NCBI GenBank assembly: GCA_030831965.1
Contig: JAURJZ010000078.1
Span: 1-54,967 of the forward strand
Direction of reading: 5' to 3'
Origin: Verrucomicrobiota bacterium
Lineage (GTDB): Bacteria; Verrucomicrobiota; Verrucomicrobiia; Opitutales; UBA953
Length of the DNA: 54,967 bases
Notes under the pieces: model-generated
Database searches by the model: none
Seen by the model: the letters and a program-made list of their open reading frames with translations, nothing else
Told to the model about the DNA's origin: nothing
In this document: piece by piece, positions 153 to 9,975 of the stretch
How the letters are laid out: every line of letters starts with the position of its first letter
How positions within the stretch are numbered: position 1 is the stretch's first letter
Translations under genes and position numbers: made by a program

Positions 153-2063
153 CTAACGCTGCCAACGCTTGCAGACAATTTCATGAACCCAGTCAGAGCG
201 GGCCTTGAGGGCGTCTTCTCCGAAATACTTAAACTGAGGAAGGGCGGTTTTAATCCACTCCCCGGTCTTCCTGGTCAGAATATACTCTCCATTTGCATAT
301 ATGGCAAGTTTCTCGGCCAGCGGCCTGTTGCCTAACTTAGAATTTTCGTCGTTTCTAACGATTGTTAAATTACCAATAACGTGGACATTGTTGGCAAGAA
401 ACGCCTCTAAGTTAGCAACCGAAGAAAGGTGCGACCGCCAGTCACCTTCTTTAGCAGCTGATTGCGGAATGATATGCTCAATCGAATTTTCACTTTCCTT
501 GTAGTTTTTCTGGGTCCGTGGATCCAAAAATCTATCAATTTCACCAAGTACAAAATAGCGCTGGAAGCTCTTACCATTAGTATAAAAAGGAGCCGTGCGC
601 ATCAAATCGCGCAAGCGCTCATTAGTGGGCCATTCCAAATCAGCACCAGTTAGGGCGATATGCAGCTGTGCCACCGGGTCTGATTTCGGTGGCAATGCTG
701 CGAGCGCCCGAAGCAATTTACCATTGGAAAGATTGAGGTTATTAGGCGGCAGGTTCGCTAAGAAGCGTCGCACAATGTAGCTTTCGAGAAACTCGGCGCA
801 CTTAGCGAAAGCGTGCTGATCAATAGCCCCGTCCTTTTTCAGACGAGCAAGCCAGAGGAAGAATGGAGTACAAGTTGAACCACCGGCCTGGAAGACACGC
901 GAAATAGCAGATGCCTCGTTTCTATTGAAGTAAGAGTGTCCTTCAATCTGCTGAGTGCTTTCAATTTTCTCGATTTCTGCGTAAATGGGTGCCCACTCTG
1001 CTATGGCCTGGAGATGCTCACTCATCTTTTCGGCATTTTCTCTGGCTCCTGAGTTAAGTAGCTCGGATTTAACAAGGCTATACACACGGTTCTGCATGGC
1101 GTAACTTCCACGTGAAACGTAATAAGCCCAGATGAAGTGCTCTTGCGAGCTGTCCTGAGATATATGGGTCTTTACCCTGCCCCAATGCTTTTTCATTTCT
1201 GAATTAGCACTATCTGCACCGAGAAGCATGTAATAGTAATTTTTAATTAACTCGATTTGGGCCAATGGCTCACTCTTCGCATTCAAGGACTCAAAGATTC
1301 CGTTAACATCGTCAGCGTCGGCTGTTTCAATCTGAATAAACATGAGCCTGGTCAAAACCACCTCTTCAAGTTTCTCAAGGTCCAACGGGAAAAGCTCTTC
1401 AAACCTTTTTAGCTCGCCGTCGGCTGCAATTACTTCGCGTTCGCGATTAATTGCCCGGAGAAAGTATTTGTAGCTGTCGTAAACTAGCGTCTTTTCCGAT
1501 CCAGATGCAGCGGCAGGCCTTTTCTTCAAAATCACAGCCTCAAGGGCTGCCCGGTCCTCCTCTTGAAGATGAATCCGGTAGCGATGAGAGTCATCTCTAG
1601 CCCTAGCATTAATAAAGAAGTCGTTATTAAAGGCATCGAACTTAGCCTTTTCAGGATCTTCAGTGGACTTAGCCTTTTTCTTTTTTACCCCCTCTTTAGC
1701 AACATCATCCTTCTTTGGAGTATACTTTATCCTGCAATCGCGGATAGCAGCCAAAAGAGTGAACAGCGTAGTAAGACGCTGCTGACCATCGATAACCTCA
1801 GAACTTGCAACTCCACTCAATTGGGATGGCCCTGCGAAAACAAGCGTACCCATGTAATGGGTAGGAGTGCGCTTTAAAGACGCCGTTCGATTCTTGGCGC
1901 CCAGTGCTTCATGGGTCTTTTCGTACTGAGTTAGAATGTCATACCAAAGTTCGTCGCGCTTATCCTTTCCCCACTTGTAAGGCCTTTGAAAAGGGGGGAT
2001 GACGAAACACTTTGTGCCTTGGATTATTTCCTGAAAGTTGGTCGGGGATGAGTCCATGCTCAT
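153..2063 (-). CDS. GmrSD-like DUF262/DUF1524 protein (636 aa)
   Basis: The N-terminal DUF262 (GmrS-like) part carries the signature DGQQRLTT at residues 92-99 and, further on, the F-x-x-LN-x(6)-L-x-x-I-x-LIKN block. The C-terminal DUF1524 (GmrD-like, HNH-type) part carries EHIIPQS with its histidine at about residue 530, followed by the GNLTIV and N-x-KLGN asparagines. In the family these are NTP-using and nuclease modules of type IV restriction enzymes that cut modified DNA, so an anti-phage role is likely, though substrate cannot be read from sequence. Base composition is clearly AT-rich with unrelated codon use (AAA, ATT, TTA frequent) compared with the GC-rich genes on both sides, indicating recent acquisition. 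A weak purine-rich site (AGAAGAG) precedes the ATG. No partner gene, integrase or transposase is next to it. Confidence 0.88.
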   Translation of the reverse strand: MSMDSSPTNFQEIIQGTKCFVIPPFQRPYKWGKDKRDELWYDILTQYEKTHEALGAKNRTASLKRTPTHYMGTLVFAGPSQLSGVASSEVIDGQQRLTTLFTLLAAIRDCRIKYTPKKDDVAKEGVKKKKAKSTEDPEKAKFDAFNNDFFINARARDDSHRYRIHLQEEDRAALEAVILKKRPAAASGSEKTLVYDSYKYFLRAINREREVIAADGELKRFEELFPLDLEKLEEVVLTRLMFIQIETADADDVNGIFESLNAKSEPLAQIELIKNYYYMLLGADSANSEMKKHWGRVKTHISQDSSQEHFIWAYYVSRGSYAMQNRVYSLVKSELLNSGARENAEKMSEHLQAIAEWAPIYAEIEKIESTQQIEGHSYFNRNEASAISRVFQAGGSTCTPFFLWLARLKKDGAIDQHAFAKCAEFLESYIVRRFLANLPPNNLNLSNGKLLRALAALPPKSDPVAQLHIALTGADLEWPTNERLRDLMRTAPFYTNGKSFQRYFVLGEIDRFLDPRTQKNYKESENSIEHIIPQSAAKEGDWRSHLSSVANLEAFLANNVHVIGNLTIVRNDENSKLGNRPLAEKLAIYANGEYILTRKTGEWIKTALPQFKYFGEDALKARSDWVHEIVCKRWQR

Positions 2064-2316: not shown

Positions 2317-3750
2317 TCAGCGACGGCCCAGGAGCTCGTCGACCTTGGGCAGGATGGCCGAGACCCAAGCCTCGGCGCCGGCGGCGTTGGGGTGGATCAG
2401 GTCGGGCATGAGGGCGGTGTCGATCGCGCCGTCGGGACGGAGGAAGACGTGGCCGACATCGAGCCAGAAGACGCTGCGGTTATCGGCCAGCCTCGCCGTC
2501 AGCTCCCCCGCGCGGGTGAGCTCGGCAAGCGCGGCCGCCGAGCGGTTGTATTTCCGGCCGAAGTCGGTGCGCGAGTCCGGCCCGCCGCAGGGGAAGGGAC
2601 GCAGGATGAGCACCTTGGAGGTCGGGTGCCGCTCGCGGATGAGGTCCACGATGGCCTTTGTGCCCGCGAGCACCTGGTCGGCGGTGTGTGTCTTCCTGTA
2701 ATGCTGGTTGTCGGTGTTGTTCGTGCCGATGAGCAGCACGAAGACCTTGGGCGACTGCGGGAAGCCGAGCTCGCCGTCGCGCAGGTTCCAAAGGATGTCC
2801 TCCGTGCGATAGCCGCTGTAGCCGAGGTTGATCGCCTTGCGCGGGGCGAGGTGACGGTCCCAGACCGCCCGCAGGGGGGCCCATTCGCCCCCCATGTCGC
2901 CGACCGTCTGGGTGATGGAGTCGCCAACCATCACGAGATCAAAGCCGCCCTTGCGAACCTCGGCGACCTTGGCCGCATGGCGGCTGGAGGGACGTGGATT
3001 GGGGAAGTCGGCGTCGCCCGGCCGGGGTCCGGGCACCGAGGCCCAGGCGGCGTCGAGGGCCGGGCGGATGAGCTTGGCCATGGCGGCGTAGCCGGCGGGG
3101 CTGGGATGGAGGGCGTCCGGAAGGTAGGTGTCGGGGCGCGGCTCGCCGTCGGGCAAGTTGAGCGCCGGATTGATGTCAACGAACCACACGCCCGGCGCCT
3201 CCTTGGCCAAGGCGGCGGCGCCGCGATTGAACTCGGCGAAGGCCTCCCACTTGGCACGGCGGACCGGCGCGAGGGGCGCGGCGAGGATGACCACGGGCAG
3301 GCCGGGCTGGGCGGCGCGGAGACGCTGGACGACCCGGCGGGCGCGGTCGACGGCGGCGGCGGGCGGATCGCCCGCCCAGATGTCGTTGCCGCCCGCTTGG
3401 TAGACGACGACCCGGGGCTTGTGCGGGAGGACGATGCGGTCGAGGTAGCCGAGGACCTCGGTGCTGAAGGCGCCGCCAAAGCCGCGGTTGAGGATGGGAT
3501 ACGGGGCGAAGTCGGACGGCGCGGAGGACCACATCCGGAGCGAGCTGGCGCCGGCGAGGGCGACCTGGCCGGGCGCAGGGGGCGCGGCGCGGTCGGCGGC
3601 CTCGAAGGCGGCGATCTCCTTGGCGTAGCGCAGGGGGCGGGACTCGAGGGGGACGTGCGGGGTGGCGTCAGCGGCGACGAGGGCGCCGGCAAGGAGAAGG
3701 AGGAGGGCGCGCCGGGCGAGCAGGCCGGGCGACAGCAGGGGCAGATCCAT
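2317..3750 (-). CDS. Secreted tandem SGNH/GDSL hydrolase (two domains)
   Basis: Two SGNH hydrolase domains sit in one 477-residue chain after a signal peptide (LLLLLAGALVAADA). The first has GASS (nucleophile block, about residue 69), GGND (block III) and DALHP (Asp-x-x-His block). The second has GDSIT, GTNN and DLIHP and resembles the PAF-acetylhydrolase IB-type esterases common in Verrucomicrobia and Planctomycetes. Both triads look complete, so both halves could be active, most likely as carbohydrate or lipid esterases outside the cytoplasm. ATG 3750 is chosen; a TTG two codons upstream (3756) is also in frame. It is the last gene of the DUF1080 operon, 73 bp after the cytochrome fusion gene. 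The natural substrate is unknown. Confidence 0.85.
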   Translation of the reverse strand: MDLPLLSPGLLARRALLLLLAGALVAADATPHVPLESRPLRYAKEIAAFEAADRAAPPAPGQVALAGASSLRMWSSAPSDFAPYPILNRGFGGAFSTEVLGYLDRIVLPHKPRVVVYQAGGNDIWAGDPPAAAVDRARRVVQRLRAAQPGLPVVILAAPLAPVRRAKWEAFAEFNRGAAALAKEAPGVWFVDINPALNLPDGEPRPDTYLPDALHPSPAGYAAMAKLIRPALDAAWASVPGPRPGDADFPNPRPSSRHAAKVAEVRKGGFDLVMVGDSITQTVGDMGGEWAPLRAVWDRHLAPRKAINLGYSGYRTEDILWNLRDGELGFPQSPKVFVLLIGTNNTDNQHYRKTHTADQVLAGTKAIVDLIRERHPTSKVLILRPFPCGGPDSRTDFGRKYNRSAAALAELTRAGELTARLADNRSVFWLDVGHVFLRPDGAIDTALMPDLIHPNAAGAEAWVSAILPKVDELLGRR

Positions 3751-3823
3751 GCGCAAAGGGTGGGCGTTGACCGGACATCGGGCAACCCGCGAAAGCAGGC
3801 CTGGAGGGCGGTTGCCGGGCGAC

Positions 3824-6800
3824 TCAGCGCAGCGACCGGAGCCAGGCGACGAGGTCGAGGAGCTCTTGTTCGCCGAAGGCGGCGTCGAGGCCCATGGGCA
3901 TCAGGCTCTGGGGCACGTGGGTCTCGGAGACGATGGAGGCGGTGGGGATGAGGCGCGCGACGCCGCCGACATCCATCAGCGTCAGCCCCTCGAGGCCTCG
4001 GCCCTTGGCGAGGCCGAGGTGGGATTGGCCGTCGGACGTGGCGACGAGCAGCGTCTCGTAGTCGCGGGCGAGAGTGTTGGAGGGCAGAACGATGCTCTCG
4101 AGCAGCTCGCGCTCGGTGCGGATGGCGCCGATGCGGGACAGGTCGGGACCGACGGCCCGGCCGAGGTCGCCCGCCTTGTGGCAGGCCATGCAGGCTCCCT
4201 TGCCGGACGCGAAGACCTTGGCGCCCTCGGCGGCGCGGCCCTCGAGGACGGCCCTGCGGCCGAGCTCGTCGAGACGCGCGGCCTTGGCGAGGTTGGCGGC
4301 CTGGGCGGCGTCGAAGGCCTTCTCCATGGGGGCGAAGACCTCGCGGGGCCAGCGTCCGAAGCCGACCCTCACGCGGTCGGGCTGGAGGGTGCCGAGCTGG
4401 GGCGATTGGGCGAGGGCGGCGGCGATGCGGCGGCCCTGGGCGGGCGTGTAGGTGCGGACAACCTCGAGGAACTCGGCGTGCTCGAGGGGACCGGTTCGGA
4501 CGAGAATGGGAAGGAAGCGGTCGAGCTGGGCGTCGGTGAGGCGGGCCTGGGAGAGGCGGCGGGCGGCGTCGAGGCGCAGGGAGACGTCGGACGCGTCGCC
4601 AAGCAGCTCGAGGAGAAGGTCGAAGGGAGCGGGCTCGAGGCGCGAGGCGTCGGAGCCGGAAAGGGCGAGGAGCGCCTTGAGGCGCACGGCCTTGGGGCGG
4701 GCCGTGTCCTGGGAGAGCGCGCGCAGGGAGGGGTCGAGCGAGCGGTGGCGCGCCTTGGCGGCGGCGTCGATCGCGAGGGGCGAGGGCGACTCGGCGAGGA
4801 GCTTGATCAGCGGCGCGCGCCAAGCCTCGGGCGAGCCATCCTTCGACCGGGAGGCGACGGCGCGGAGGGCGAGGGAGCGGACCTCGGGGGCGGCGTGCGA
4901 GAGCGCGGTGGCGACGACAGGCTCGAGGTCGGGTTCGGAGGCGAGGAGGTCGGCGAGATTGGCGAGCGCGGCGAGGCGGGGCGCGGGCAGCTGGGCATCG
5001 GACAGCCAGGCGTTGAGCAAGGGTTGGAGACGGGCGGAGGCGGAGGCGTCGACCTCGAGGGCGAGCGTGGCGCGACGGGCGAGCGAGGGCTCGGCGGAGT
5101 CGAGATGGGCGAGGGCGAAGTCGAGGAGGGGGGCGGAGGGGACGTCCTTGGCCTGGGAGAGGACGCGCAGGAGTCGGCCTTGGCGAAGCGGCGAGTCGCC
5201 GGCCTTGAGCAGGGCGACATCGGGGGCGCCCACGGTGTGCTGCGCATGCAGGGCGGCGTGCTCGAGACAGGGATCGAGGGGGCGGGCGAGCAGGTCGAGG
5301 AGGGCGGCGCGGATGGCGGGGTCGGACAGGCGACGGAAGGCGGCTTCCTCGAGGGCGCGGCGGGCGACGGCGGCATCCGGGCCGAGGATGGCCTGGGCGA
5401 GGGCTTCGGGGCTGCGGGGCTTGAGAGCGGGGGCGGGGTCGATGGCGGCGAAGGCGCCGGGCTTGGCGGGGCGGAGGCGGTAGACGGCCCCCGGCTTGGT
5501 GCCGGAGGACTTCAGGCTGGAGGGGCAGTGCGGGTACCAGGTGCCGGTGTCGAGCACGAGCAGGGAGCCGTCGGGCGCCTCGATGACGTCGGTCAGGTGG
5601 ATGCCGTCGGCCTTGAGCGTGAGAAAGGGGTGTTCGGTGGCGCGGTAGGCGGCGCCCTCGGGGGTGAGCTCAAGGCGGAGAATCTGCTTGGAGTTGTAGA
5701 GGCTGACGAGGAGGTGGCGGGCGGAGGGGTGGGCGGACCAGGGGCGTCCGGCGGGGGCGAGGTCGTTGGCGCGCGTCCAGAGGTCGCAACCGGAGGGGAC
5801 GCGGTGGCCGAGGTCGTGAAGGAGGGGCATGCGCTCGTGGGCGCGGAAGAGGCCGGCGTTGAGTCGGGCGTAGTCGGGCCGCTCGTACATGGCGCCGAGC
5901 TGCCAGAGCAGGACGGTGTCGGAGCGGGGGACGCCGAAGTGGAGGTTGACCGTGCCGAGGATGTCACCCTGCTCCGTGATGGCGAGGCCGGTGGGGTTGT
6001 CGGCCGCGGCGAGCGCGTGCCAGCGGATGTCGGATCCGTCGGGGTTCATCGACCAGAGACCGCTGTGGAGGCCGGAGTGCACGGGGGTGCCGTCGGCCTG
6101 CCGCACCTCGTGCCCCTTGCGGCCGTGGGTCCAGTAGAGGCGGCCGTCGGGATGGATCCACGGGCCGTGGACGTCGGCGCCGTTGGCGGTCCATTTGAAG
6201 CCGCCGACCATGAGCTTGCGGGATTCCGCGAAGCCATCCCCGTCGGCGTCGGTGAGCTTCCAGATGCCCGGGGGCGAGGCGACGTAGAGGCTGTCCCCGA
6301 GCCAGCAGCCTCCCTTGGGCACGGTCAGCCCGTCGGCGAAGACCGTGCTGCGGTCGAAGACGCCGTCGGCGTCCCGGTCCTCCATCATCACGATGCGCCC
6401 GGCCTTGGCCCGCTCGTGCTGCGAGGCGCCCCAGGCGGTGCCGGGAGAGTCGCCGACGAAGAGGCGCCCGCGGGGGTCGACGCAACCGAGGGTCGGGTGC
6501 GCGACCATGCCGGCGTGGTCGGCGCGGATCAGCTCGAAGCCCTCGGGGGCGGCATGGGGCGGCACGGGGCCGGCCGAGGCGCCGGGCGCGGCGCGCATCT
6601 CAAGCGGACGCGCCACGTGCGGCGGCGCGCCGTCGGGCGCATGGCGCGCCCCGGCGTCCTTGCCCGGCTTGGCGGCCGGCCAGGCCTCCTTGAAGCCGCC
6701 GAGGGGGTGAAGCTCGTAGCGGCGCACGAACATCTCGGCGGCCTCGGTCTGGAGCAGGATGCGCCCGGCGGCGGGCTTGCACTCGAAGGCGCGGTTGACG

Positions 6801-7540
6801 AGGACGCCGTTGACGAGGAACTCCAGGGTGTCGCCCTTGGCGATGACCTCGAGGCGGGTCCATTCGCCGTAGGGCGACTCGACGTCGGCCTTGCCGCGGA
6901 AGCCGCGCACGTCGCGCCAGGCGGGGTCGCGGAACTGCCAGTCGACCCGGCCGCCGCCGACCTTGACCCGGGGAGCGTCGGGCACCCAGACCAAGCCCCC
7001 GCGGCCCTTGGGCCGCACGGCCTCCATCATGGCCGAGACCTGCAGCACGGTGCCGTCGGGCGCCTTGGAGGTGAGGGCGAGGTAGTCCCCGGTGCCGCCC
7101 TCGATGATCTGGGCCTCATGGCTGGCCATCCAGGCGCCGCCGTTGGCGCCCTCGGGGCCGAAGCAGTGGACGAGCACGCCGCTGTCGCGGCTGGCCTTCT
7201 CGCGCTTGCCCCAGGTCTTCTCGCCCCACTTGTAGTCGCAGACCAGGTGGTAGTCCCTGTAGGCGGCCTTGGTGGTGAGGCCGCCGTAGCCCTTGCCGCT
7301 GACGCGCAGCTGGCCCTCGGGCGTGACGCTGAAGACCTCCTTGGGGTCGTCGATGATGTCGGCCTTGGGGTTGAGATGGACCGACATCCCGCCGTCGCGG
7401 AAGGTCTGGATGAGGTCGATCCGCGCGGTGACAGCCTGGGGAACAGGCTCGGGAGGGAGTCCCCCCGGCGGGGACTCGGCGGCGAGCAGGGCGGCGGCCA
7501 GGACGGCCGCGACCCAGCCCGGAGGGGCTTGGGTAAGCAT
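3824..7540 (-). CDS. DUF1080 - PVC beta-propeller - HEAT - cytochrome c fusion (1238 aa)
   Basis: Exported multidomain protein. After a signal peptide comes a DUF1080 (3-keto-disaccharide hydrolase type, concanavalin-like) domain at about residues 35-275, then a membrane-bound-dehydrogenase-type PVC beta-propeller at about 325-690, with calcium-like DRDADGVFD and DADGDGF loops, then alpha-helical HEAT-like repeats to about 1060. The C-terminal haem domain has CMACH (Cys1117, Cys1120, His1121) and a likely axial Met in SLMPMGL. Family knowledge: DUF1080 proteins act on 3-keto-glycosides, and the propeller-cytochrome combination suggests a periplasmic redox enzyme. I infer oxidation of a sugar coupled to 3-keto-sugar cleavage in a single polypeptide. 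Its DUF1080 part is paralogous to the preceding gene, 48 bp upstream. No frameshift is seen. Confidence 0.88.
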   Translation of the reverse strand: MLTQAPPGWVAAVLAAALLAAESPPGGLPPEPVPQAVTARIDLIQTFRDGGMSVHLNPKADIIDDPKEVFSVTPEGQLRVSGKGYGGLTTKAAYRDYHLVCDYKWGEKTWGKREKASRDSGVLVHCFGPEGANGGAWMASHEAQIIEGGTGDYLALTSKAPDGTVLQVSAMMEAVRPKGRGGLVWVPDAPRVKVGGGRVDWQFRDPAWRDVRGFRGKADVESPYGEWTRLEVIAKGDTLEFLVNGVLVNRAFECKPAAGRILLQTEAAEMFVRRYELHPLGGFKEAWPAAKPGKDAGARHAPDGAPPHVARPLEMRAAPGASAGPVPPHAAPEGFELIRADHAGMVAHPTLGCVDPRGRLFVGDSPGTAWGASQHERAKAGRIVMMEDRDADGVFDRSTVFADGLTVPKGGCWLGDSLYVASPPGIWKLTDADGDGFAESRKLMVGGFKWTANGADVHGPWIHPDGRLYWTHGRKGHEVRQADGTPVHSGLHSGLWSMNPDGSDIRWHALAAADNPTGLAITEQGDILGTVNLHFGVPRSDTVLLWQLGAMYERPDYARLNAGLFRAHERMPLLHDLGHRVPSGCDLWTRANDLAPAGRPWSAHPSARHLLVSLYNSKQILRLELTPEGAAYRATEHPFLTLKADGIHLTDVIEAPDGSLLVLDTGTWYPHCPSSLKSSGTKPGAVYRLRPAKPGAFAAIDPAPALKPRSPEALAQAILGPDAAVARRALEEAAFRRLSDPAIRAALLDLLARPLDPCLEHAALHAQHTVGAPDVALLKAGDSPLRQGRLLRVLSQAKDVPSAPLLDFALAHLDSAEPSLARRATLALEVDASASARLQPLLNAWLSDAQLPAPRLAALANLADLLASEPDLEPVVATALSHAAPEVRSLALRAVASRSKDGSPEAWRAPLIKLLAESPSPLAIDAAAKARHRSLDPSLRALSQDTARPKAVRLKALLALSGSDASRLEPAPFDLLLELLGDASDVSLRLDAARRLSQARLTDAQLDRFLPILVRTGPLEHAEFLEVVRTYTPAQGRRIAAALAQSPQLGTLQPDRVRVGFGRWPREVFAPMEKAFDAAQAANLAKAARLDELGRRAVLEGRAAEGAKVFASGKGACMACHKAGDLGRAVGPDLSRIGAIRTERELLESIVLPSNTLARDYETLLVATSDGQSHLGLAKGRGLEGLTLMDVGGVARLIPTASIVSETHVPQSLMPMGLDAAFGEQELLDLVAWLRSLR

Positions 7541-7588
7541 GACCCGACTAGGACTGCCTTGGGGCGAGCGGGGTTCCCGGGGAACGGC

Positions 7589-8422
7589 TCAGTCGCCCGT
7601 CCATTTCTCCCCGAAGGAGCCCGGCGGGTGAAGCTCCCACCGGCGGAAATGGATCTCGGACCCCTCGGACTGCAGCTGGATGCGGCCGGCGGACGGGCGG
7701 CACTCAACGGCGCGGTTGACGACGACGCCGTTGACGCGGAACTCAAGCGTGTCGGAGCGGGCCACGACCTCGAGCCGGCCCCAGCGGCCATGGGTCGGCT
7801 CGACATCCTCGCGCCCGCGGAAGCCGGCCACGCTGCGCCAGGCCGGGTCGCGCCGCGACCAGTTGACGCGCCCCTTGTCAACCAAGGGAATCCTCTCGCC
7901 GCCCTCCTTCCAATAAAGCTCGCGCCCCTCGCGCCGCGCCTCGCCGACCAGGCTCACCGGCAGCGGCGGCTCGGTCGGCTTGCCGTCCGCGGTCAATCCG
8001 GACAGCAGCAGGAGGTCGCCGACCGCGCCCTCGATGATCTCCGCCTCGATGCTCGCCATCCAGGAGCCGCGGCGCCCTCCCTGCGGACCGCGGGCGTGGA
8101 CCAGCACGCCGGAATTGCGCGCCCTGCCGGCGGCCTTGCCCCACTGCGCGTCGCCCCATCGGTACTCGACCACGAGATGATAGTCCCGCCAAGCGTCCCG
8201 GGAGGTGACCGCCCCGTAGCCCTTGCCGCTGACGCGCAGGGTGCCGTCGGGCTGAAAGGCGAAGACCGACGCGGGAGCATCGACCGCGTCGCCCCTCGGG
8301 TTGAGATGCACCTCCCAGCGGCCGGCCCTGCCCTCCGCCAACAGGTCGACCTTGGCGTGCGGCGACCTCGCGGGGGGCTCGGCGCCGGCGGCAAGCAGGA
8401 GGAGGGCGGCGAGGGTCGGCAT
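7589..8422 (-). CDS. Secreted DUF1080 (3-keto-glycoside hydrolase-like) protein
   Basis: This 277-residue protein has a short signal peptide (MPTLAALLLLAAGAEPP) and a single DUF1080 domain filling the rest. Diagnostic pieces are the LRVSGKGYG segment, the RDYHLVVEYRWG strand, NSGVLVH, the EAEIIEG acidic patch and the closing GRIQLQSEGSEIHFR strand. Several of these recur almost unchanged in the N-terminal domain of the next gene, so the two arose by duplication. Start ATG 8422 is preferred to an in-frame start 49 codons upstream because it begins directly with the signal peptide. It opens a minus-strand operon with the cytochrome fusion and the SGNH gene. DUF1080 homologues cleave 3-keto-glycosides; the sugar here is not known. 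Confidence 0.85.
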   Translation of the reverse strand: MPTLAALLLLAAGAEPPARSPHAKVDLLAEGRAGRWEVHLNPRGDAVDAPASVFAFQPDGTLRVSGKGYGAVTSRDAWRDYHLVVEYRWGDAQWGKAAGRARNSGVLVHARGPQGGRRGSWMASIEAEIIEGAVGDLLLLSGLTADGKPTEPPLPVSLVGEARREGRELYWKEGGERIPLVDKGRVNWSRRDPAWRSVAGFRGREDVEPTHGRWGRLEVVARSDTLEFRVNGVVVNRAVECRPSAGRIQLQSEGSEIHFRRWELHPPGSFGEKWTGD

Positions 8423-8577: not shown

Positions 8578-9219
8578 ATGGCCCGCCTGCTGCTGATCGA
8601 CTGCGACTCGACGCTCTCCGCCGTGGAGGGCATCGACGAGCTCGGACGCCTGCGCGGCCCGGCGGTCTTTGCCGAGGTCGAGCGCATGACCAACGAGGCG
8701 ATGGACGGCGGCACGCCCCTCGAGACCGTGTTCGCCCGGCGGCTCGAGCTCATCCGGCCGACCCGGTCGGAGGTCGAGACCATCGCGACCAGGTACCTCG
8801 CCACGGTCGAGCCCGACGCGGCGGAGGCCCTGCGCCGCATCCGCGCGGCCGGCTGGCAGGTCGCGATCGTCAGCGGCGGCTTCACCGAGGCCATCCTGCC
8901 CCTCGCCCGCTCCCTCGGCATTGAGAGGGTCGAGGCGGTCGGACTGCGCTTCGCCGCCAACGGCGCCTACGCCGGCTTCGACGAATCCGCCCCGACCTGC
9001 CGCTCGCGCGGCAAGAACGCCGTCGCCCGCCGCCTCCGCGCCGAGCTGGGCGCGGTGGAGGTGGTCATGGTCGGCGACGGCGCCAGCGACCTGGAGGTGA
9101 GGGGCGACGCCGACCGGGTGATAGGGTTCGGGCGCTTCGCGGAGCGGCCGAAGGTCAAGGCCGGGGCCGACGCCTTCATCCGCTCCTTCGCCGAACTCCC
9201 CGGGCTGCTCGGGGTCTGA
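8578..9219 (+). CDS. serB: Phosphoserine phosphatase-like HAD hydrolase (SerB)
   Basis: A 213-residue HAD-superfamily phosphatase that should convert O-phosphoserine to serine, the last step of serine synthesis. Motif I is IDCDSTL near the N-terminus (nucleophile Asp and general-acid Asp), motif II is VSGGF, the motif III lysine lies in SRGKNAV, and motif IV is GDGASDLE, close to the usual GDGANDL. The helical cap between motifs I and II (ERMTNEAMDGG) is typical of SerB. The length fits single-domain SerB without an ACT domain. ATG 8578 is chosen because motif I follows at once. It is 6 bp from thuA downstream and divergent from the DUF1080 operon. Confidence 0.88.
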   Translation: MARLLLIDCDSTLSAVEGIDELGRLRGPAVFAEVERMTNEAMDGGTPLETVFARRLELIRPTRSEVETIATRYLATVEPDAAEALRRIRAAGWQVAIVSGGFTEAILPLARSLGIERVEAVGLRFAANGAYAGFDESAPTCRSRGKNAVARRLRAELGAVEVVMVGDGASDLEVRGDADRVIGFGRFAERPKVKAGADAFIRSFAELPGLLGV

Positions 9220-9225
9220 CACTCC

Positions 9226-9975
9226 ATGCGCCCCCTTCTCCTCCTGCTGGCCGCCCTGGCGCCCCTGTCGCCCGGGGCCGCCGAGCCGCTCCGCGTGCAC
9301 ATCCGCTCGGGACCCAAGAGCCACGGCCCGGGCTGCCACGACCATCCGGCGTTCCTGCGGGACTGGCCCCCGCTGCTGCGCTCGCTCGGCGCGCAGGCGG
9401 GCGGGAGCGACCTGCCGCCGACGGCGGAGGAGCTGGCGCGGGCGGACGTGGTCGTCATCCACCGCCAGTGCGGCGCGGACATGGACGACGCGGAGCGCGG
9501 CCGGCTCGAGGCGTTCGCCCGGCGCGGCGGGGGCATCGTCGTCATCCACGCCGGCATCGCCGCCAACCACACGGCGGGCCTGGACGCGGTCAAGGACCTG
9601 GTCGGGGGCGTCTGGCGCCCGAGGGTCACGCGCTGGCGCGAGGGACCCATGGAGCTCGCCCTCGCCGCCCACGGCCACGCCCTCGGCAAGGGCGTGGCGG
9701 ACTTCGGCATGGACGACGAGATTTACTACGACCTCGACCTCAGGCCCGACATCCAGGTGGTGGCGACGGCGCCCACGCCCAGGCGCCGGGGCGACGGCTT
9801 CGAATCCCAGCCCCAGGTGTGGGCGTACGAGAGGCCCGGCGCCCAGCGCGCCTTCGTCTTCGTGCCCGGCCACCGCTACGCGAACTTCTCCCGGCCGGAC
9901 GTGCGCGAGCTGCTCCTCCGCGGCATCGGCTGGGCGGGGCGCCGCGAGGCCGAGTTCCCGCCGCGGGCGCGCTGA
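9226..9975 (+). CDS. Secreted ThuA-like protein
   Basis: This 249-residue protein has a signal peptide (LLLLLAALAPLSPGAAEP) and a ThuA fold of the class I glutamine-amidotransferase-like superfamily. Visible features are ARADVVVIH, the RGGGIVVIHAGI turn, an H-x-L-x-x-G-V-x-D-F motif after the central GGVW segment, and the late FVPGHRYANF strand. ThuA-like proteins are tied to trehalose and 3-keto-sugar use, and exported versions are very common in Verrucomicrobia beside DUF1080 genes. It follows serB by 6 bp and lies close to the DUF1080 operon, so a role in the same glycoside pathway is plausible. The reaction is not established for this subfamily. Confidence 0.82.
   Translation: MRPLLLLLAALAPLSPGAAEPLRVHIRSGPKSHGPGCHDHPAFLRDWPPLLRSLGAQAGGSDLPPTAEELARADVVVIHRQCGADMDDAERGRLEAFARRGGGIVVIHAGIAANHTAGLDAVKDLVGGVWRPRVTRWREGPMELALAAHGHALGKGVADFGMDDEIYYDLDLRPDIQVVATAPTPRRRGDGFESQPQVWAYERPGAQRAFVFVPGHRYANFSRPDVRELLLRGIGWAGRREAEFPPRAR

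What the first reader, a model, noticed from the sequence alone, without database searches (positions are those of the whole stretch)
2317..8422. Secreted DUF1080 - propeller - HEAT - cytochrome c fusion in an operon with DUF1080 and tandem SGNH genes
Seen: one 1238-residue exported protein joins a DUF1080 hydrolase-like domain to a PVC propeller, HEAT-like helices and a CxxCH cytochrome, and sits between a second DUF1080 gene and a double SGNH esterase; a ThuA-like gene lies nearby. Known: DUF1080 and ThuA families are linked to 3-keto-glycosides, and cytochromes to sugar oxidation. Inference: the operon oxidises, cleaves and deacylates a glycoside in the periplasm, with oxidation and cleavage coupled in one chain.
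Basis: partly seen in the sequence, partly recalled or inferred. Interest (0 to 1): 0.62.

Follow-up and report, generated by a model that had tools for sequence, protein, structure and literature searches.

The report
Sugar-enzyme-like domain fused to cytochrome
The gene is real and encodes a long exported protein that joins a sugar-cleaving-type domain to a haem-carrying protein of unknown job; the same design is common in Verrucomicrobiota and seems to have been put together more than once, which suggests the two parts work together on sugars, but nobody has shown what the protein does.

Summary
Gene 3824-7540(-), 1238 aa, joins DUF1080 (PF06439), a DUF7133/TIGR02604 domain, a HEAT/ARM solenoid and a TIGR02603 cytochrome c domain. 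A tandem DUF1080 paralogue (7589-8422) lies 48 bp upstream and a double-SGNH gene (2317-3750) 73 bp downstream.

The architecture is not unusual. Of 80 named relatives, 60 have the full fusion and 13 more are fused but cut by contig ends. They fall into two classes that share one DUF1080 subfamily but carry two distantly related propeller-HEAT-cytochrome backbones. The fused propellers do not form one clade (AU p = 7e-10), and a split adjacent gene pair occurs in class B. This repeated pairing is the best evidence that the domains work together.

Haem ligands and putative DUF1080 pocket residues are invariant in all 57 fused proteins compared. The operon chemistry is weaker: SGNH and ThuA are not conserved neighbours, ThuA lies on the opposite strand, the genome lacks LacA-type GMC oxidoreductases, and PQQ ligands do not line up.

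Verdict: a widespread, apparently undescribed variant of PVC haem proteins, probably glycoside-active; coupled oxidation and cleavage remain a hypothesis.

The parts
3824..7540 (-). fusion gene, 1238 aa: signal - DUF1080 - propeller - HEAT - cytochrome c
   Evidence: homologues of the same architecture
7478..7540 (-). putative signal peptide (residues 1-21, MLTQAPPGWVAAVLAAALLAA; no positive n-region)
   Evidence: read from the sequence; no prediction program was available
6680..7435 (-). DUF1080 / 3-keto-disaccharide hydrolase domain (residues ~36-287)
   Evidence: PF06439; model pLDDT 95.8; VIA-align Z 17.0 to 3imm and 14-15.6 to BT2157-type structures
5549..6547 (-). DUF7133 / TIGR02604 domain, presumed beta-propeller (residues 332-664)
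   Evidence: profile match between class A and class B propellers, 99.2%
4244..5410 (-). HEAT/ARM-like helical solenoid (residues ~711-1099)
3833..4234 (-). TIGR02603 cytochrome c domain (residues 1103-1236)
   Evidence: solved homologue 7zs0
4178..4192 (-). haem motif CMACH (residues 1117-1121)
   Evidence: sequence; invariant in 24 class A, 33 class B and 4 unfused proteins
3899..3901 (-). Met1214 in SLMPMGL, presumed axial haem ligand
   Evidence: invariant; the aligned Met differs (M to C) between solved sequences of the 7zs0 group
7589..8422 (-). free-standing DUF1080 paralogue (ATG at 8422; ORF open to 8569)
   Evidence: PF06439 64 bits; 52-55% identical to the fusion's domain; 48 bp upstream of the fusion
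2317..3750 (-). double SGNH/GDSL hydrolase; block I Ser, block III GxN and block V DxxH read in both halves
   Evidence: PF13472, two stretches; motifs read from the translation
8578..9219 (+). HAD phosphatase-like gene, divergent from the DUF1080 genes
   Evidence: PF12710/PF00702
9226..9975 (+). ThuA-like gene, 6 bp after the HAD gene, opposite strand to the fusion
   Evidence: PF06283

Best explanation
An exported, single-haem c-type protein of the PVC-specific TIGR02604/TIGR02603 class carries at its N-terminus a DUF1080 domain of one particular subfamily (E.Q and QTE motifs). Shown by sequence: the architecture, the haem motif, the conserved pockets and the repeated pairing of this DUF1080 subfamily with such haem proteins. 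Inferred: the protein works in the periplasm or at the cell surface on a sugar glycoside; DUF1080 binds and probably cleaves it (hydrolysis, or elimination and hydration if the sugar carries a 3-keto group), the propeller offers a second substrate-facing pocket, and the haem passes electrons to or from the respiratory chain. The tandem DUF1080 paralogue may extend the substrate range. SGNH and ThuA are not needed for this reading.
For: Domain and fold matches. The DUF1080 fold is closest to DUF1080 structures, with the 3-keto-glycoside eliminase/hydratase (BT2157-type) entries 3osd, 8tda, 8rr2, 9fbe among the best. E142, Q144, W227, R229, E231, N244, Q264, E266, R273 are invariant in 57 of 57 fused relatives and C1117, C1120, H1121, M1214 in all compared. 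The same DUF1080 subfamily is fused to two distant backbones (AU p = 7e-10), and is a separate gene beside a TIGR02604/TIGR02603 gene in G255. A DUF1080 protein is needed for lactose use with a membrane dehydrogenase in Caulobacter (PMC9007349). Other PVC cytochrome genes carry carbohydrate-binding modules (PMC5615132).
Against: No conserved catabolic neighbours. The propeller has no recognisable redox cofactor site. DUF1080 members can be plain endo-glucanases (PMC10881899), overlap with CBM66 (PMC5673643; CBM66 Z 15.3) or decorate kinases (PMC11032199), so the name does not fix the activity. Identity to characterised 3-keto enzymes is only ~14% over aligned residues.
Confidence: 0.42

Rival explanations
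1. The DUF1080 domain is a carbohydrate-binding (lectin-like) module that anchors the haem protein to a polysaccharide or the cell wall and does not catalyse.
For: Close structural match to CBM66 and other ConA-like binding domains (Z 15.3 for 4azz). DUF1080 and CBM66 annotations overlap in planctomycetes (PMC5673643). DUF1080 sits on the outer side of membrane kinases (PMC11032199). Other PVC cytochromes carry CBMs (PMC5615132).
Against: Deep conservation of a polar set (41 invariant columns in 37 sequences at roughly 47-66% identity) is more than a binding module usually needs; the closest named structures are DUF1080 proteins, some of them enzymes.
Confidence: 0.25
2. DUF1080 is an ordinary endo-glycanase and the haem part is only a tethered electron-transfer partner with no 3-keto chemistry.
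For: THTE_1561, a DUF1080 protein, hydrolyses xanthan, lichenan and beta-glucan (PMC10881899). No LacA-type GMC oxidoreductase in this genome.
Against: Would not explain why this subfamily was paired with a cytochrome on two backbones. The genome does hold 13 Gfo/Idh/MocA matches, one with a Tat-like signal next to tandem DUF1080 domains (L171), as expected for 3-keto chemistry.
Confidence: 0.17
3. The propeller oxidises the sugar itself and hands electrons to the haem, and DUF1080 cleaves the 3-keto product: the reader's coupled one-chain enzyme.
For: Dense set of invariant His and Asp in the class A propeller (H458, H463, H472, H477, H488, D514, H579, H648, D651) and a haem in the same chain.
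Against: Those residues are replaced in class B, which has the same DUF1080 and haem domains. PQQ arginines of GSDH dehydrogenases align with D514, H648 and T650 (weak alignment). No flavin or NAD domain found in the chain.
Confidence: 0.16

Closest known systems
PVC-type haem-binding CxxCH proteins (TIGR02604 + TIGR02603)
   Same: Propeller domain, helical repeats and C-terminal CxxCH domain with conserved Met; both models over cut-off.
   Different: N-terminal DUF1080 domain; the TIGR02604 match is marginal (126.2 vs 122.2) because class A is a divergent branch, whereas class B matches at ~350 bits.
BT2157-type 3-keto-disaccharide hydrolase / 3-keto-2-hydroxyglucal hydratase (PF06439; 3osd, 8tda, 8rr2, 9fbe)
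   Same: Same Pfam family and fold; conserved E.Q strand.
   Different: About 14% identity; extra inserted segment (W..RD..W); 'LQ.H' of the canonical forms in the same genome is LQ.E / QTE here; fused to a haem protein.
LacABC plus periplasmic DUF1080 (Caulobacter lactose oxidation, PMC9007349)
   Same: Periplasmic redox chemistry linked to DUF1080.
   Different: No GMC family LacA in this genome; the cytochrome is in the same chain as DUF1080.
Planctomycete-specific cytochromes PSCyt1-3 with CBMs (PMC5615132)
   Same: Large PVC proteins joining haem c to a sugar-binding-type domain.
   Different: No PSCyt or PSD domains in this protein; different haem-domain family.

Membership tests
PF06439 (DUF1080, 3-keto-disaccharide hydrolase) | profile score over the curated cut-off | tested here: met
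   67.2 bits against 26.8; the tandem paralogue 64.3
PF06439 (DUF1080, 3-keto-disaccharide hydrolase) | ConA-like/GH16-like fold as in solved DUF1080 proteins | tested here: met
   pLDDT 95.8; Z 17.0, rmsd 2.1 over 159 residues to 3imm
PF06439 (DUF1080, 3-keto-disaccharide hydrolase) | catalytic residues of the characterised 3-keto enzymes | tested here: inconclusive
   E.Q strand kept and pocket candidates invariant, but the residue list of the characterised enzymes was not available and canonical LQ.H is LQ.E / QTE here
PF06439 (DUF1080, 3-keto-disaccharide hydrolase) | cleaves 3-keto-glycosides | not testable with these tools
   needs an enzyme assay
PVC-type haem-binding CxxCH protein (TIGR02604/TIGR02603) | both models over cut-off | tested here: met
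   126.2 vs 122.2 and 95.8 vs 68.15
PVC-type haem-binding CxxCH protein (TIGR02604/TIGR02603) | CxxCH and distal Met | tested here: met
   C1117, C1120, H1121, M1214 invariant; solved homologue 7zs0
PVC-type haem-binding CxxCH protein (TIGR02604/TIGR02603) | haem actually bound | not testable with these tools
   needs haem staining or spectroscopy
PQQ glucose/sorbosone dehydrogenase (GSDH, PF07995) | profile match | tested here: not met
   no PF07995 hit at E <= 0.1
PQQ glucose/sorbosone dehydrogenase (GSDH, PF07995) | PQQ-binding arginines | tested here: inconclusive
   aligned positions hold D, H and T, but profile probability is only 1% (class A) and 83% (class B, last part only)
Planctomycete cytochrome PSCyt/PSD proteins | PSCyt1-3 or PSD1-5 domains | tested here: not met
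   none in the fusion
LacABC-DUF1080 lactose oxidation system | GMC oxidoreductase LacA in the genome | tested here: not met
   no PF05199 match in the genome, 98% complete
HEAT/ARM repeat solenoid | superhelical paired helices | tested here: met
   model helices 673-1061, Foldseek hits importin alpha/beta and PP2A scaffold

The most novel reading that the evidence does not exclude
A self-contained redox glycosidase: the propeller oxidises a bound sugar at C3 with the haem as electron acceptor, and the DUF1080 domain of the same chain cleaves the 3-keto-glycoside, a way of breaking glycosidic bonds that was assembled more than once in Verrucomicrobiota and would give a function to a large class of PVC haem proteins.
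Probability: 0.14. Interest if true: 0.75.

Novelty: new variant of a known kind. Interest (0 to 1): 0.4.

Why it matters
[quoted passage not shown] A DUF1080 subfamily that is joined to two distant backbones of such proteins, and sits next to one as a separate gene in a third case, is a direct hint that at least some of them act on glycosides, and it names a small set of proteins on which this can be tested.

Tried and rejected
Operon chemistry with SGNH and ThuA: no SGNH homologue in any of the 80 related loci, ThuA-like in one; rejected as a conserved system. Recurrent neighbours of class A are a beta-lactamase-family hydrolase, a protein-tyrosine phosphatase-like gene, PSCyt3/HXXSHH pairs, LptF/G and purD, of class B PSCyt2/PSD1 genes and housekeeping genes: no sugar pathway. 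PQQ dehydrogenase reading of the propeller: the PDB profile search found no GSDH, hhalign was weak and ligands not kept. Full-length structure: the propeller part is too poor to use (pLDDT ~30), so domain geometry and haem-to-pocket distance were not assessed. Promoter and terminator scan uninformative. Active-site residues of DUF1080 enzymes: the paper in hand does not list them in its text and the 2024 pathway paper I recalled is not held. Two align calls failed on wrong frames; the first was redone, the second replaced by a script.

Full report
What is in the window. The gene at 3824-7540 on the minus strand encodes 1238 residues: a hydrophobic N-terminus, DUF1080 (PF06439, residues 73-274), DUF7133/TIGR02604 (332-664), a helical stretch, and a TIGR02603/cytochrome c domain (1103-1236) with CMACH. 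The gene before it on the same strand (ATG at 8422, stop at 7589, 48 bp gap) is a single DUF1080 protein 52-55% identical to the fusion's own domain. The gene after it (ATG at 3750, 73 bp gap) holds two SGNH domains, each with a nucleophile serine block, a GxN block and a DxxH block (read). ThuA (9226-9975) lies on the other strand behind an HAD phosphatase-like gene, so it diverges from the DUF1080 pair. The genome is a 1.85 Mb, 98% complete assembly. Its closest relatives for this protein are Opitutae/Opitutales MAGs; the same-class family f11, whose fusions are of the type found in named Verrucomicrobiaceae, places it in the Verrucomicrobiota (inference).

The domains. The DUF1080 domain was modelled with 37 sequences at pLDDT 95.8. 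Its nearest solved structures are DUF1080 proteins (Z 17.0 for 3imm, 16.9 for 4jqt), with BT2157-type 3-keto-glycoside enzymes (3osd, 8tda, 8rr2, 9fbe; Z 14.2-15.6) and CBM66 (Z 15.3) close behind. It belongs to a subfamily with its own signature: an inserted W..RD..W segment, the strand EAQIIEGG, and LQ.E / QTE where the canonical forms in the same genome have LQ.H. E142, Q144, W227, R229, E231, N244, Q264, E266 and R273 are invariant in 57 fused relatives. In the tandem paralogue Q144 is replaced by E and its branch is long, so it may be diverging. The full-length model supports a HEAT/ARM solenoid but not the propeller, which rests on profile matches. The haem motif and Met1214 are invariant in class A, class B and unfused relatives; the solved homologue 7zs0 aligns over the whole domain.

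How common it is. A scan of 289 genomes of the phylum found the same architecture in five further genomes of one family. A scan of about 85,000 species genomes with the DUF1080 subfamily gave 172 encoded relatives, of which the best 80 were kept; 60 of these are complete fusions ending in CxxCH, 13 are fused but cut by a contig end, and 7 are not fused (two of these, L065 and L076, end soon after the domain at a contig end). Records of the window's genome or one very near it may be left out by the tool. In the window's own family the three other genomes drawn lack the fusion, so the distribution is patchy. Organism names of some MAG records look unreliable (for example L061 and L066).

Two pairings. 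Class A (the window and Opitutae-type MAGs) and class B (Verrucomicrobiaceae, Prosthecobacter, Brevifollis) share the DUF1080 subfamily (class A up to 66%, class B 52-57% identical to the window's), but the class B propeller-cytochrome parts are only about 21-36% identical to the window's in BLAST pieces. In the propeller tree each fused group is nested among unfused TIGR02604 proteins, and a tree that forces all fused propellers together is rejected (AU p = 7e-10; the group was named before the test but after seeing the identities). Four genomes of family f11 carry a class B fusion and, separately, an unfused class A propeller-HEAT-cytochrome protein 39-43% identical to the window's. In genome G255 the DUF1080 gene is a separate reading frame directly beside a TIGR02604/TIGR02603 gene of class B type. 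Two independent joins, or one join and one backbone replacement, or many losses, cannot be fully told apart here; the first two both mean that the pairing was kept or remade, which argues for a shared task.

Mechanism. Nothing here shows catalysis. What follows from known families: one PF06439 member is a 3-ketotrehalose hydrolase and another is needed for lactose use together with a periplasmic 3-dehydrogenase (PMC9007349); another is a broad endo-glucanase acting on xanthan (PMC10881899); others overlap CBM66 (PMC5673643) or sit on kinases (PMC11032199). The genome has no GMC oxidoreductase, so no LacA, but 13 Gfo/Idh/MocA matches, one with a Tat-like RRNFL signal next to tandem DUF1080 domains on another contig (L171). 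The class A propeller has a dense set of invariant His and Asp residues, but class B replaces them, and the positions that would hold PQQ arginines in GSDH dehydrogenases carry D514, H648 and T650, in a weak alignment (the PQQ residue list is from memory). I therefore favour an exported haem protein acting on glycosides through DUF1080, with the electron step likely but its donor unknown, and give the one-chain oxidise-and-cleave model about one chance in seven.

Comparison and novelty. By its defining features the protein is a member of PF06439 and of the TIGR02604/TIGR02603 class. It is not a PSCyt/PSD protein, not part of a LacABC system and not a recognisable GSDH. The held literature has six papers naming DUF1080; a search for DUF1080 with cytochrome and Verrucomicrobia found none, and the passages read do not describe this architecture. 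Most subscription journals are not in that library. It is thus a widespread, seemingly undescribed variant of a known kind, not a curiosity of this genome.

Noticed in passing
window 153-2063 (-): GmrSD-type gene (PF03235 + PF07510, DUF262/DUF1524), a probable modified-DNA restriction protein, directly after the SGNH gene.
   Followed up: no
L171:3610-6506 (-) (genome contig C88): A Gfo/Idh/MocA protein with a Tat-like signal (NRRNFLATTALAAA) lies directly beside an ORF with two DUF1080 domains and near a further one: a layout that fits periplasmic 3-keto sugar chemistry, elsewhere in the same genome.
   Followed up: partly
L012-L015, L167-L170: Unfused class A propeller-HEAT-cytochrome proteins in genomes that also own a class B fusion; neighbours include a Gfo/Idh/MocA gene (L167), a CotH kinase gene (L168), Band 7 genes (L169) and a PSCyt2/PSD1/laminin-G protein (L170).
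   Followed up: partly
L110:5671-6516 and L126:5340-6182: Free-standing DUF1080 genes in tandem before a class B fusion, the same layout as in the window but grouping with class B in the tree, so the tandem arose separately.
   Followed up: partly
L135:5585-8932: Class B fusion split into two adjacent ORFs (503 and 612 aa) within the propeller; sequencing error, frameshift, stop codon or real split.
   Followed up: no
L063:9363-10946, and the same gene family in L066 and L093: A tryptophan-halogenase-family flavoprotein gene (PF04820) lies 39-101 bp after the class A fusion in four loci.
   Followed up: no
PDB chains 7zs0, 7zs1, 7zs2 (relatives of window 3833-4234): Solved TIGR02603-type dihaem protein whose deposited variants differ at the conserved Met (SIMP vs SICP), which suggests the axial ligand was altered on purpose.
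   Followed up: no
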